A stretch of DNA of 48,901 nucleotides from Methanolinea sp. (GTDB taxonomy: Archaea; Halobacteriota; Methanomicrobia; Methanomicrobiales; Methanospirillaceae). Shown in pieces: positions 28,307 through 34,776 of this stretch. The DNA is taken from NCBI GenBank assembly GCA_018263335.1, contig JADFCY010000013.1, forward strand, positions 1-48,901, in the 5' to 3' direction. The position numbers were made by a program, and so were the translations under genes. How positions within the stretch are numbered: the first letter of the stretch is position 1; the number at the start of each line of letters is the position of its first letter. The notes under the pieces were generated by a model that had not been told where the DNA came from, searched no databases, and saw nothing but the letters and a program-made list of their open reading frames with translations.

Positions 28307-29599
28307 TCAAGGAACCAGGCGGTGCCTGTCGCGCGGAAAGAGGACGGCTTCACGGATATTCTGGAGCCCGAGCATGGTCATGACAAGCCGCTCGGCGCCA
28401 AGACCCCATCCGGAGTGGGGAGGCATCCCGTACCGGAACGGGGTGAGGTAGAACAGAAAGCTCTCTGGGTTCAGCCCCTTCGACTGTATCTGGCGGACGA
28501 GGAGGTCGTGCTGGTGCACCCGCTCTGAGCCCGAGGAGAGCTCCATACGGGGGTGCATCAGGTCAAACGCCTTGCAGACGGAAGGGTCGTCGTCGTACGG
28601 CATCGCATAGTACGGTTTTATCGCGGTGGGCCAGTCGACGATGAAGTAGTGGCTGCCCATCTCCTCGCCGATTGCTTTCTCTGCCGCGGTGCCGATGTCG
28701 TCGCCGTACGAGATGGGTTCATCGGTCTTTTTCTGGGCGATTGCGATCGCCTCCTCGTACGGAAGGCGTGGGAAGGGGGACGAGGGGACTTCGAAGTCCC
28801 CAAGTTCGAGCAGGTCGAGAAATGGCCGGCAGGTCGAATCGACTCTCCTGTATGCGGCAATGACGATCTCCTCGAGGAGCGCCATCACCTGGTGGTGATC
28901 GGCGTACGAGACCTCCACGTCGATCGAGGTGGCCTCGTTCAGGTGTTTCGTCGTATTGTGCTCCTCTGCCCTGAAGATGGGACCGATCTCAAAGACCTTC
29001 TCAAAGCCCGCACCCATCATCATCTGCTTGTAGAGCTGCGGGCTCTGGTTCAGGAACGCCTCCTTCTCAAAGTAAGCGATAGGGAAGAGCTCGGTCCCTC
29101 CCTCTGTTGCCGCGGCCACCACTTTTGGAGTGGTGATATGGATGAATCCTGAAGAGAAGAGGTGCTCGTACACCGCCTGCATACAGGCGTTCCTGACCTG
29201 GAAGACTGCAGCTACCCGGGGACGCCTTGCGTCCAGGAAGCGGGAATCGAGCCTTGTATCCAGTTCTGCAGGTACTTTCTCGACGACATCGAGGGGAAGC
29301 GGGCTCTCTGCGAGGCTCACGATCTCGAATGACTCTGGGACAAGCTCCCTTCCCCCCGGGGCTTTCTCGATTGCCTTCACGGTCCCGGCAACCCTGACCA
29401 CGGATTCGCGGGAGACCTCCCTGACTGCGGAGAGCACGGCCTCCGGGACTTTCTTCTTGGGGACGGTCACCTGGATGATCCCGGTGCGATCCCTGACGAG
29501 GAGAAATGAGAGTCCCCCCAGGTCCCGCAACTCGTGGACAAAACCCACTATCTCTGCCCTTTCCACGCCGGGAGTGACCTCCTGTATCGGTATCCGCAT
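28307..29599 (-). CDS. aspS: Aspartate-tRNA ligase, probably non-discriminating
   Basis: 430 residues, archaeal-type class IIb. An OB-fold anticodon domain (about 1-105) is followed by a catalytic domain with motif 2 [27 protein letters not shown] and motif 3 [15 protein letters not shown]. The anticodon domain has His22 in GFVHELRD and Pro81 in KAPGG. These positions are His and Pro in AspRSs that charge both tRNA-Asp and tRNA-Asn, and Trp and Lys in discriminating ones. This suggests that Asn-tRNA is made by transamidation. The frame extends to 29653, but ATG 29599 ([11 protein letters not shown]) gives the family start. A downstream methionine synthase gene follows within 8 nt. Confidence 0.94.
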
Positions 29600-29711
29600 A
29601 TGAAATCCAGTAGCTATGGGATCTGAAGGATAATTGTGTTTTCCTGCGCTCACGGGAATAGCGGAGGATATGGATGCACGCCGTACCTGTTAAAATTGCC
29701 TACGGGACCCT

Positions 29712-30692
29712 TCAGTCAGTCCCGAATATCTCCTGCTGGATGGCCGATTCCATTCCCTGCTGTGCAGAGAGCGCAGCTTTCAGGTGGGCGGGACTCTCCC
29801 AGACAAACCAGTCCTGCATTCCCATCATGACTCCCCAGCGTGAGAGTATCTCTCTTGAAAGCGCGAAGATCTCCCTGAAATATTCCTCGTTAAAATCCCT
29901 CTCCATGTCCATGGTGATGGTGAGCTTGAGGATGTTCGAGAGCGCATCCCCGACCATCTTGGTATGGTACCACGGGGAACGGCTCCAGCGGTGGCTCATC
30001 ATCTCTTTGACGTCAAGGTTCCGGAAGCGCTGGAGCTCGGGGATGTTGATGACGGGGTTCAATTTGTACTCGGAGAGCACGTAGGCAAGCAGCATGTCCC
30101 TGGCATAGTACATCCCGTTGTGCAGGACAAAATAGCGCTGGGGCAGGAACTCTTTGACTGGGACCAGGTCGTGCATGTCGCGCATGCTCTCTTTTAAGAG
30201 GAAGTAGACCTGGGCGTTCCTGATCACGGGGTATTTCCTCGAAATCACGAGGTTTGCGAGGAGGGTGAGCGGGAGTTCGGAGAATGCCTCGTGGAAGAGC
30301 ATATACAGGAGAAAGACGAGCTGCTTCTTTCTCCAGACGGCAATGTTCCGGGTACCCTCGTCCTTGAGGATGTCAAGGTAGATCTGCTGACAGGCAGGGA
30401 GCGCACACTCCTTTGAGAAGGAGATGACCCGAAAATCGTTGTTTTTGGCCGCACAGCCCTTTGCCAGGAGTTCCAGGCAGTGGCGGCAGATGGTGTAGTC
30501 CTTGAGCATCCCAAGCTGGGAACTCGAGAACGCGATCACGTGCTTGCCGGTTCCGAACATGAAGTCATCGATAAGGACTCCCTGTGGAGGCACATCCGTC
30601 CTCCTGACAAGCTGGATCTCGGTCCCGAGGCATCCTTCCGCGAACTCGAGGAGCTCACGCAGGACAGGGGAGAGATTAAACGAGTGGTTCAT
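29712..30692 (-). CDS. Unrecognised 326-residue protein with paired cysteines
   Basis: I do not recognise the family. The frame is long, has coding character like its neighbours, and has a promoter-like box (GTTTATTATTC on the minus strand, near 30760-30770) about 70 nt upstream. Visible features are a Cys-rich part (TICRHCLELLAKGCAAKN, then KECALPACQQ; about 68-125), a hydrophobic helical stretch QLVFLLYMLFHEAFSELPLTLLANLVI (about 147-173), and a C-terminal half rich in Trp, Tyr and Met (HRWSRSPWYHTKMVGDALSNIL; GMQDWFVWESP). The Cys pairs could bind a metal. The spacing to neighbours indicates a single-gene unit. It could be a conserved methanogen-specific protein. No function is proposed. 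Confidence 0.6.
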   Translation of the reverse strand: MNHSFNLSPVLRELLEFAEGCLGTEIQLVRRTDVPPQGVLIDDFMFGTGKHVIAFSSSQLGMLKDYTICRHCLELLAKGCAAKNNDFRVISFSKECALPACQQIYLDILKDEGTRNIAVWRKKQLVFLLYMLFHEAFSELPLTLLANLVISRKYPVIRNAQVYFLLKESMRDMHDLVPVKEFLPQRYFVLHNGMYYARDMLLAYVLSEYKLNPVINIPELQRFRNLDVKEMMSHRWSRSPWYHTKMVGDALSNILKLTITMDMERDFNEEYFREIFALSREILSRWGVMMGMQDWFVWESPAHLKAALSAQQGMESAIQQEIFGTD

Positions 30693-31187: not shown

Positions 31188-31838
31188 TCAGCGGGAAATC
31201 CTCGCGTGGAGTTTCCTGAGCGTCGGCTCAATGGTGGGGAGGTAAATGTTGAGCACGTTCCAGACGAGACCCCAGTCGGGTGAGAAGTAAGGGTGTATCA
31301 GCCGCGACCTGAGGCCTTCGAGCTCTTTCCAGGAGATCCCCCTTGAGTCCTGCATGCACTGGTCCGAGACCCTTGCCGCTGATTCACCTATGACCTCAAG
31401 GCTCCGGACCACGGCACGCCGGAGCGTCTCGTCCTTCTGGAAGTCCCGGGCGGACACACCCTTTGTGCGGTGGGAGAGATAGGAGATCTCATCGAGGATC
31501 TGCCCGAGATACACCTTGTCGCGGCTGAGCACCGCATACTCGGACCCAAGTTCCGGCCTGATGTACGAGGCGAGCACGCGGGACATCACAAGGTCCACTC
31601 TCCTCCCAAGGAGTTCATCGAGGTACAGGGAAAGGCCGATATAGTTTGCATAGGTGTCCATCCCCGAATCGAATTCCACCTCGATATCAACATCGCTTTC
31701 GGTCCGCTCCTCGCCGCGGGCGACGGAACCGAAGATGCCGATCTTCTTCACTCCGTATAGCCTGCGCATCACTGCGAATTTCGCATTCAGGGCGAGTATC
31801 ACCTCTTCCCTTGTAGATGGTCTCTCCTGTGGCGGCAT
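31188..31838 (-). CDS. MNT nucleotidyltransferase-HEPN fusion (single-chain MntA-HepT-like protein)
   Basis: 216 residues with two domains that are usually separate genes. Residues about 1-105 form a minimal nucleotidyltransferase (MntA) with the intact motif GS-x10-DxD (Gly37-Ser38 ... Asp49, Asp51) and a further Asp in RRVDLV (Asp82). Residues about 110-216 form a HEPN/HepT domain with the R-x4-H-x-Y motif intact (Arg177, His182, Tyr184) and the following SPDWGLVWNVL. In two-gene systems HepT is an RNase toxin and MntA adds AMP to the Tyr of that motif. Here both lie in one frame without a break. The open frame runs back to 32477, but ATG 31838 gives the domain start; the upstream part is the antisense of a lipoprotein gene. 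It appears to be a single gene. Confidence 0.85.
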   Translation of the reverse strand: MPPQERPSTREEVILALNAKFAVMRRLYGVKKIGIFGSVARGEERTESDVDIEVEFDSGMDTYANYIGLSLYLDELLGRRVDLVMSRVLASYIRPELGSEYAVLSRDKVYLGQILDEISYLSHRTKGVSARDFQKDETLRRAVVRSLEVIGESAARVSDQCMQDSRGISWKELEGLRSRLIHPYFSPDWGLVWNVLNIYLPTIEPTLRKLHARISR

Positions 31839-31983: not shown

Positions 31984-32508
31984 ATGATCATGCACACGCG
32001 TGAGAGACTGGCATGTGTCCTCATCATTGCAGTCCTGGCATCTGCCTGTGGCGGCTGTCTCATGGCGGGAGGCCCTGAAGGAGAAGTGCCCCCTACAGCG
32101 ACCTTCTCTGCTGCCCCCACTCCCCGAGTCATGGAGGGAGGGGTTGATGCCGGCAAACCAAAAGAGCCTTCCCTCCCCCCGAACCAGGCGTATCCCTTCC
32201 GGCCGCAGGGTGTCTTTCGGGCAGGAGACCGTATCCTTCTCAACGGCACGACGATCCTCTCTCCCGGGAACCATATCCTCGTCGAGGTCACGCCTGTCTC
32301 GTTTGGCCCGACGAGGAAGAGTGACCCGGTCGCGGTTTCAGGGAGCGCGGGCGTCGTGGCGGTCCTCGCAGGAGAACGCGGACTTCCGAATACCTGGTCG
32401 TACCTGATCGACACCCGCGGATGGGAACCAGACGAGTACCTGGTAAAGGTGCAGGGAATTGAGGTGCCTCTCTCCACCGCAAGCTACCGCTTCACGCTTC
32501 TCCCCTGA
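31984..32508 (+). CDS. Surface lipoprotein with a domain common in Methanomicrobiales exported proteins
   Basis: 174 residues from ATG 31984 (ATG 31990 is equally possible). A signal peptide with lipobox-like LASAC (Cys about 21, with two further Cys in GGC) is followed by a Pro-rich spacer (to about 65) and one beta domain. The domain runs through RAGDRILLNGTTILSPGNHILVEVTPVSF, SGSAGVVAVL, TWSYLIDTRGWEPDEYLVKV and ends ASYRFTLLP. I recall this layout as a repeated module in S-layer-like and lipid-anchored proteins of this order; the role is unknown. It is divergent from the MNT-HEPN gene (145 nt apart). The longer frame back to 31654 overlaps that gene and is not used. Confidence 0.72.
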   Translation: MIMHTRERLACVLIIAVLASACGGCLMAGGPEGEVPPTATFSAAPTPRVMEGGVDAGKPKEPSLPPNQAYPFRPQGVFRAGDRILLNGTTILSPGNHILVEVTPVSFGPTRKSDPVAVSGSAGVVAVLAGERGLPNTWSYLIDTRGWEPDEYLVKVQGIEVPLSTASYRFTLLP

Positions 32509-33873: not shown

Positions 33874-34776
33874 TCAGCCACCCCTCACGAGAGAGAGTAT
33901 CCTTTTTGCAAGCGCTTCGTCAACCCCGGGGCGGTTCATCAGCGTATCCATCCTGATCGCGCCGCTCACTTCGAGCGGATCCGATGAGTCATGGATGAAG
34001 AAGTCAAGGAACCCGGCGTAGAGTTCCCTCGTTGCAGACGAGTCTGGAAAGAGACCTCGTGCCCTCATCAGGGCCGCGGCCGGGCCGCTCACCGGGGCGT
34101 GACCGATGAACGGGCTCACGGCAACGACCGGGACCTCCTCCAATGCCTCGCGAACACCCCTGCACTCGAGGATGGGCAGGATGCTGGTGATGGGGTTGCT
34201 CGGGCCGATGATTACCGCCTCGGCAGTAGTGATCGCGGAGATGACACCGGGGGTGGCGACAGGAGGAACAGTCCATCTCCTCCTGACCCCCTCGATGGGA
34301 ATCGCGCCCCTGTGCCGGACCCAGTACTCCTGGAAGTGAATCTCGCGCCCCCCGGAGTTGACCACGGTCTCGACGGGAGTGTCAGTCATTGGAAGGATAT
34401 GGGCCGTGACCCCAAGTGCCATGCACAACCGGGCGGTCGCGGCGGTCAGGGTCATCCCTCCCCTGAGGAGTTCTCCCCGAATGAGATGGACAGCCCGATC
34501 GCGGTCCCCTATGGCGATGTATTCCCCGCCGTCCAGCCTATTGAGCTCATTATGGGTGATGAACGTATCCCCCTCCAGTCCCCACCACGAGGACGTGTTG
34601 AGGAGACCGGCGAAGAGATAGATCAGGGTGTCGATGTCGGGCGAAACGAACCCCCCGCTCATCCACACGTCTTCTGCGGTATTGACGACCACCGAGATCT
34701 CATGGTCGGGCAGGTGGTGCCTCATGCCCCGGATCAGCTTGGGGGTCCCGGTCCCCCCTGAGAGGAACGTGATCAT
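33874..34776 (-). CDS. cofD: 2-phospho-L-lactate transferase
   Basis: 300 residues, with MITFLSGGTGTPKLIRGMRHHL at the start, then VVVNTAEDVWMSGGFVSPDIDTLIYLFAGLLN, YIAIGDRDRAVHLIRGELL, and the substrate loop IIGPSNPITSILPIL, as in CofD. The enzyme joins the 2-phospholactate moiety to the deazaflavin Fo to give F420-0 in coenzyme F420 synthesis, an essential hydride carrier in this kind of methanogen. The N-terminus needs the ATG at 34776. The only TATA box nearby (34786-34796) fits the divergent HD gene better. Confidence 0.95.
   Translation of the reverse strand: MITFLSGGTGTPKLIRGMRHHLPDHEISVVVNTAEDVWMSGGFVSPDIDTLIYLFAGLLNTSSWWGLEGDTFITHNELNRLDGGEYIAIGDRDRAVHLIRGELLRGGMTLTAATARLCMALGVTAHILPMTDTPVETVVNSGGREIHFQEYWVRHRGAIPIEGVRRRWTVPPVATPGVISAITTAEAVIIGPSNPITSILPILECRGVREALEEVPVVAVSPFIGHAPVSGPAAALMRARGLFPDSSATRELYAGFLDFFIHDSSDPLEVSGAIRMDTLMNRPGVDEALAKRILSLVRGG

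What the first reader, a model, noticed from the sequence alone, without database searches (positions are those of the whole stretch)
31188..31838. Toxin and antitoxin fused in one chain: MNT nucleotidyltransferase + HEPN RNase domain
MntA (AMP-adding antitoxin) and HepT (HEPN RNase toxin) are normally two genes. Here a 216-residue frame holds both with every key residue present: GS-x10-DxD in the first domain, and R-x4-H-x-Y with its modifiable Tyr184 in the second. A permanent 1:1 fusion suggests self-AMPylation in cis and control by something other than antitoxin decay, for instance a phage- or stress-linked loss of AMPylation.
Basis: partly seen in the sequence, partly recalled or inferred. 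Interest (0 to 1): 0.72.

Follow-up and report, generated by a model that had tools for sequence, protein, structure and literature searches.

The report
Fused toxin-antitoxin protein, probably domesticated
In a group of methane-producing archaea, a toxin (RNA cutter) and its antitoxin (an enzyme predicted to attach AMP) have merged into one protein that became an ordinary inherited chromosomal gene, and comparison of relatives shows that the cutting site has been decaying while the AMP-attaching site and its presumed target tyrosine have been kept.

Summary
Window 31188-31838 (-) encodes one 216-aa chain with an MNT nucleotidyltransferase domain (GSX10DXD) and a HepT-like HEPN domain (R177-x4-H182-x-Y184). 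It is not a sequencing artefact: about 33 orthologues, 32-95% identical, are open across the junction, lie at the same place between cofD and aspS, and are under purifying selection. The fusion has a single origin within its family. The reading 'permanent toxin plus antitoxin' is only partly supported. All 45 split HepTs from related genomes keep R-[DN]-x3-H-x-Y; none of about 33 fused orthologues does. The RX4H arginine or histidine is lost in several fused lineages, including members of the window's own genus, while every member with an intact MNT site keeps that site and Tyr184. A second, independent fusion in another archaeal family shows the same pattern. Best reading: a vertically inherited, domesticated MNT-HEPN protein selected for nucleotidyl transfer, probably onto Tyr184 in cis or across a HEPN dimer, rather than for RNase toxicity. 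The window copy still has R177 and H182, so residual RNase activity is not excluded. MNT-HEPN fusions and their domestication were proposed in 2013, so this is a new variant of a known kind.

The parts
31188..31838 (-). gene of the fused MNT-HEPN protein, 216 aa plus stop
   Evidence: open frame; about 33 fused orthologues; dN/dS about 0.05-0.2 in both halves for nearly all pairs
31572..31769 (-). MNT (NTP_transf_2) domain, residues 24-89
   Evidence: PF01909 E 2.2e-11; 1wot hit by sequence and fold
31686..31730 (-). GSX10DXD nucleotidyltransferase motif, residues 37-51
   Evidence: invariant in all fused members scored as live-MNT and in nearly all of 48 split MNTs
31593..31595 (-). D82, third catalytic Asp of the MNT domain (equivalent role inferred from S. 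oneidensis MntA D71)
   Evidence: invariant in live-MNT fused members; role from PMC7641770
31509..31538 (-). MNT/HEPN junction, residues 101-110, inside a continuous predicted helix 95-125
   Evidence: AlphaFold2 model; open in all fused orthologues
31212..31499 (-). HepT-like HEPN domain, residues 114-209
   Evidence: PF01934 E 1.8e-18; HEPN toxin structures matched by fold
31287..31310 (-). RSRLIHPY = R177-x4-H182-x-Y184, RNase motif and predicted acceptor Tyr184
   Evidence: translation; R177/H182 not conserved in fused orthologues, Y184 conserved
33874..34776 (-). cofD, conserved landmark on one side of the locus (context, not part of the system)
   Evidence: PF01933; synteny
28307..29653 (-). 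aspS, conserved landmark on the other side (context, not part of the system)
   Evidence: PF00152; synteny

Best explanation
A former MntA-HepT (type VII) toxin-antitoxin pair was fused into one gene, settled between cofD and aspS in an ancestor within its family (Methanoregulaceae by the named relatives), and has since been inherited vertically as an ordinary chromosomal gene. Shown: one chain, one locus, single origin, purifying selection, an intact nucleotidyltransferase site, a conserved Tyr184, and erosion of the RNase site across orthologues. Inferred: the protein dimerises through its HEPN domain, the MNT domain uses ATP (or another NTP) and Mg2+ (D49, D51, D82) to put NMP on Tyr184 of its own or its partner's HEPN domain, and this modification switches what the HEPN cleft binds (RNA or a partner). 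RNA cleavage is no longer what selection maintains in the family; in the window's own lineage some RNase activity may remain because R177, H182 and E152 are still there.
For: Fused orthologues at the same cofD-aspS position across the fused genera, including catalytically dead ones. Single origin: all fused rows lie on one side of a branch in the HEPN tree (99*) and the MNT tree (84). Split HepTs: R177, [DN]178, H182, Y184 and E152 in 45/45; fused with live MNT: R 12/25, H 15/25, D/N178 6/25 (all six without H182), E152 16/24, but Y184 25/25 and every MNT catalytic residue 25/25. No fused orthologue of this family has R[DN]x3HxY. Within the window's genus R177 is Lys in L013, L014, L028, L029. 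Purifying selection in lineages that lost RX4H (HEPN dN/dS about 0.1-0.34). In MNT-dead lineages Tyr184 is lost in most members (7 of 8 rows), as are S38, D49, D51, D82, whereas W170 stays in all and D188 and W193 in 4 of 5 representatives. Parallel case: a second fusion in another family (5 genomes) keeps GSX10DXD and Tyr and lacks an intact RX4H in 5/5, while the nearest split relatives examined keep RDRxIHAY. The fused protein carries the only HepT-like domain found at E 1e-6 in four genomes 93-98% complete.
Against: No biochemistry. The window copy itself retains RX4H and E152, so it could still cleave RNA. In one studied HEPN toxin (Legionella), R98A and H103A had negligible effect on RNase activity and a Mg2+ site in helix 2 (Q44, E47) was the active site (PMC11586414), so loss of RX4H does not by itself prove loss of RNase activity. 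The co-loss of Tyr184 with the MNT site rests on about four independent lineages with long branches and is not statistically testable (one supported independent pair); L045 keeps Tyr with a dead MNT. Whether Tyr184 can reach the MNT site could not be measured because the tools return no coordinates or dimer models.
Confidence: 0.55

Rival explanations
1. A live single-chain toxin-antitoxin: the HEPN domain is an active RNase held silent by continuous self-AMPylation of Tyr184, released when AMPylation fails.
For: R177, H182, Y184, E152 and all MNT residues are present in the window copy and in close orthologues. Canonical HepT is silenced by AMPylation of the equivalent Tyr (PMC7641770).
Against: RX4H is not maintained in orthologues as close as 81% identity (L013: K177) and is gone in many others that stay under purifying selection. 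Residue 178 is never Asp/Asn together with R177 and H182 in fused members. No mobility. Nothing links the locus to defence.
Confidence: 0.2
2. A nucleotidyltransferase for some other substrate (protein or small molecule), with the HEPN domain serving as substrate-binding or regulatory domain, as in kanamycin nucleotidyltransferase or the glutamine-synthetase-modifying enzymes; Tyr184 would be part of the substrate site, not the acceptor.
For: The published domestication scheme for MNT-HEPN fusions (PMC3710099). Aminoglycoside nucleotidyltransferases are the best whole-chain fold matches, but weak. RNase site eroding, MNT site kept.
Against: The HEPN domain is DUF86/HepT-like, not one of the known substrate-binding C-terminal families; Tyr184 and its local motif stay HepT-like. 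No partner or substrate gene is consistently linked: the 326-aa neighbour also occurs elsewhere in genomes that lack the fusion.
Confidence: 0.2
3. A chromosomal trans-acting antidote that AMPylates, or dimerises with and poisons, HepT toxins of incoming mobile pairs.
For: Related genomes carry many split pairs; HEPN toxins are dimers.
Against: In G097, G099, G101 and G032 the fused protein carries the only HepT-like domain found at E 1e-6, yet the gene is kept. Some lineages have a dead MNT site.
Confidence: 0.04

Closest known systems
MntA-HepT (HEPN-MNT, type VII) toxin-antitoxin pair, e.g. S. oneidensis SO_3165/SO_3166 and T. cleftensis CL1_0070/0071
   Same: Same two domains in the same order, GSX10DXD, RX4HXY with the acceptor Tyr, third catalytic Asp
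   Different: One chain instead of two genes; fixed 1:1 ratio instead of the crystallised HepT6:MntA2 octamer; vertically inherited at one locus; RNase signature not conserved among orthologues; below the NCBIfam equivalog cut-offs (43 and 25 bits against 60)
HEPN-M (DUF86) domains 'occasionally fused to MNT' and the domestication scheme of Anantharaman et al. 2013 (PMC3710099)
   Same: Fusion of MNT with a DUF86 HEPN; tendency to lose RNase residues
   Different: Here the loss can be followed inside one orthologous family, the acceptor Tyr is kept with the MNT site, and a second fusion repeats it; the window copy still has RX4H
EzeT, single-chain epsilon/zeta-type toxin-antitoxin (Rocker and Meinhart, PMC4826407)
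   Same: Toxin and antitoxin covalently linked in one polypeptide
   Different: Unrelated domains; the fused antitoxin is not an enzyme that modifies the toxin (own knowledge)
Kanamycin/streptomycin nucleotidyltransferases (1kny, AadA)
   Same: Nucleotidyltransferase domain followed by a helical domain; weak fold match
   Different: Different helical domain family, no RX4HXY motif (PMC3710099, Table 1)

Membership tests
MntA-HepT (type VII) toxin-antitoxin system | MNT domain with GSX10DXD | tested here: met
MntA-HepT (type VII) toxin-antitoxin system | HEPN domain with RX4HXY | tested here: met
   R177-x4-H182-x-Y184 in the window protein, but not conserved in orthologues
MntA-HepT (type VII) toxin-antitoxin system | two separate genes, antitoxin upstream of toxin | tested here: not met
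   single frame, domain order kept
MntA-HepT (type VII) toxin-antitoxin system | scores above NCBIfam equivalog cut-offs for MntA and HepT | tested here: not met
   43 and 25 bits, cut-off 60 each
MntA-HepT (type VII) toxin-antitoxin system | mobile, patchy distribution | tested here: not met
   one chromosomal locus, 12 of 13 genomes of the genus counting the window's own; plasmid matches listed are two-gene pairs
MntA-HepT (type VII) toxin-antitoxin system | RNase toxicity of the HEPN protein neutralised by AMPylation of Tyr | not testable with these tools
   needs protein biochemistry
MNT-DUF86 HEPN single-chain fusions (Anantharaman 2013) | MNT and DUF86 HEPN domain in one chain | tested here: met
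MNT-DUF86 HEPN single-chain fusions (Anantharaman 2013) | HEPN typically lacks the RNase residues | tested here: inconclusive
   lost in many orthologues, RX4H kept in the window copy, position 178 altered

The most novel reading that the evidence does not exclude
Fusion of MntA to HepT turns an RNase toxin into a self-modifying protein whose AMPylated tyrosine, not its RNase, is the useful output: a form of regulatory auto-AMPylation that evolved at least twice in methanogenic archaea, with later lineages keeping only a non-catalytic scaffold.
Probability: 0.3. Interest if true: 0.65.

Novelty: new variant of a known kind. Interest (0 to 1): 0.45.

Why it matters
It gives a natural series, at one locus and within one family, from an intact toxin-antitoxin-like active site through a protein with only the nucleotidyltransferase and acceptor tyrosine to one with neither, plus an independent repeat. 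That makes the proposed domestication of HEPN-MNT modules directly testable with a handful of constructs, and separates what AMPylation of the HEPN tyrosine is for from RNase silencing.

Tried and rejected
Sequencing artefact or missed stop: rejected, about 33 orthologues in independent assemblies are open across the junction. Upstream extension to the 429-aa ORF: rejected, not conserved. The 326-aa downstream neighbour as dedicated partner: rejected, it occurs widely in the family also without the fusion and has no Pfam match. An apparent third fusion in G168 (L144): not trusted, its sequence contains an undetermined base at the junction. L169 (G461): same-frame MNT and truncated HEPN, undecided. 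Plasmid search for fused forms: the listed best matches are two-piece, two-gene pairs. Phylogenetically independent test of Tyr184/MNT co-loss: underpowered. Coordinates of the structure model were not available, so the reach of Tyr184 to the MNT site was not measured. Literature search for Cmr1-MntA or CRISPR-linked MntA gave nothing relevant.

Full report
Observation. The frame 31188-31838 (-) is a real gene of 216 codons holding PF01909 (24-89) and PF01934 (114-209), with GSX10DXD at 37-51, D82, and R177-S-R-L-I-H182-P-Y184. The longer frame upstream is not conserved. An AlphaFold2 model is confident (pLDDT 88) and a single predicted helix (95-125) leads from one domain into the other, with lower confidence just before the junction; Foldseek recovers a minimal nucleotidyltransferase and AMPylated HEPN toxins.

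Distribution. Searching the family of the window's genome found the fusion in 12 of 13 genomes of its genus (own genome included; 68-95% identity) and in related genera at 44-56% and 32-39%. An order-wide search found no further trustworthy fused members outside that family (G168 has an undetermined base). Named relatives are Methanolinea sp. and other Methanoregulaceae MAGs. In every fused genus whose flanks could be read the gene sits between cofD (with or without a HEAT-repeat gene) and aspS, whereas comparison genomes with the cofD-aspS block but no fusion show nothing like it there even with unfiltered HMM search. HEPN-domain and MNT-domain trees each put all fused rows on one side of a branch (99* and 84): one fusion, then vertical inheritance. 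A cofD tree is compatible with an early gain and some losses but does not resolve them.

What selection keeps. Pairwise dN/dS is about 0.05-0.2 in both halves for nearly all pairs, with a few higher values (up to 0.34 in HEPN, and one low-divergence outlier, L030/L031, in MNT). In 45 split HepTs of related genomes the residues R177, Asp/Asn178, H182, Y184 and E152 are invariant. In 25 fused members with a live MNT site R is kept in 12, H in 15, Asp/Asn178 in 6 (all six lack H182), E152 in 16 of 24, yet Y184 and every MNT catalytic residue is kept in all. Inside the window's own genus R177 is replaced by Lys in L013, L014, L028 and L029; in genus g17 the motif reads KDRLAGMYF or RSRLSLPYF. At least four changes in the presence of H182 and six in that of R177 are needed on the tree.

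Dead enzymes. Eight rows (from about four lineages) have lost the MNT site. Among 40 columns invariant in live members, the ones lost there are S38, D49, D82, D51, neighbours of the DXD motif, R106, E204 and Tyr184, while W170, E117 and D107 stay in all five representatives and D188 and W193 in four. Tyr184 thus goes with the MNT site rather than with the fold; but independent cases are too few for a formal test, and L045 keeps the Tyr. The dead forms still fold as MNT-HEPN and have dN/dS of 0.02-0.15, so the chain also has a non-catalytic use.

A repeat. In another family (f8, the family of G472 in the phylum search; G363, G472, G492, G506, G581) an independent fusion keeps GSX10DXD and the Tyr but reads GDRLISAYF, GDRLRSAYF, RDHLICTYF or RDRLISDYF, so RX4H is broken in 5/5; the nearest split relatives read RDRxIHAYF.

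Context. The same genome carries three split pairs, only one of which (contig C43) looks intact; those on C2 and C3 have stops. In G097, G099, G101 and G032 the fused protein carries the only HepT-like domain found at E 1e-6, so it does not exist merely to handle split toxins. The 326-aa neighbour is not specific to the fusion.

Mechanism. I commit to a domesticated MNT-HEPN protein in which the MNT domain nucleotidylates Tyr184 in cis or across a HEPN dimer and the modification controls binding rather than RNA cleavage. Shown here: anatomy, single origin, synteny, constraint pattern. Known from others: MntA transfers AMP to the equivalent Tyr (PMC7641770), HEPN domains fused to MNT typically lack RNase residues (PMC3710099). 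Inferred: self-modification, dimer, binding switch. Main caveat: the window copy still has R177, H182 and E152, and in one HEPN toxin the RX4H residues are not the RNase site (PMC11586414).

Novelty. MNT-DUF86 fusions and their domestication were proposed in 2013, and a fused TA exists (EzeT). New here: an orthologous series showing the loss in steps, retention of the acceptor Tyr with the MNT site, and an independent parallel case.

Noticed in passing
genome of the window, contigs C2, C3 and C43 (L007, L009, L008): Three split MNT/HepT pairs: C43 looks intact (GSX10DXD, RDLLIHRY), C3 has a TAG inside the HEPN gene, C2 has several stops; mobile pairs decay while the fused gene stays intact.
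   Followed up: partly
L008 2690-3401: A further MNT frame and a HEPN-like gene directly upstream of the C43 pair, possibly a class II (PF05168-type) pair; not run against Pfam.
   Followed up: no
window 31990-32508 (+): Lipoprotein-like gene divergent to the fused gene evolves fast (72-44% identity in the nearest species) and is not detected in L014-L016.
   Followed up: partly
window 29712-30692 (-): 326-aa protein without any Pfam match, strongly conserved across the family and present next to the fusion in most genera; function unknown.
   Followed up: partly
related genomes: Many split MNT-HEPN pairs lie in the same reading frame separated by a single stop codon, an easy route to fusion.
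   Followed up: no
PDB 9z7q: The structure archive lists a Cmr1-MntA fusion, another MntA fused to a different protein.
   Followed up: no
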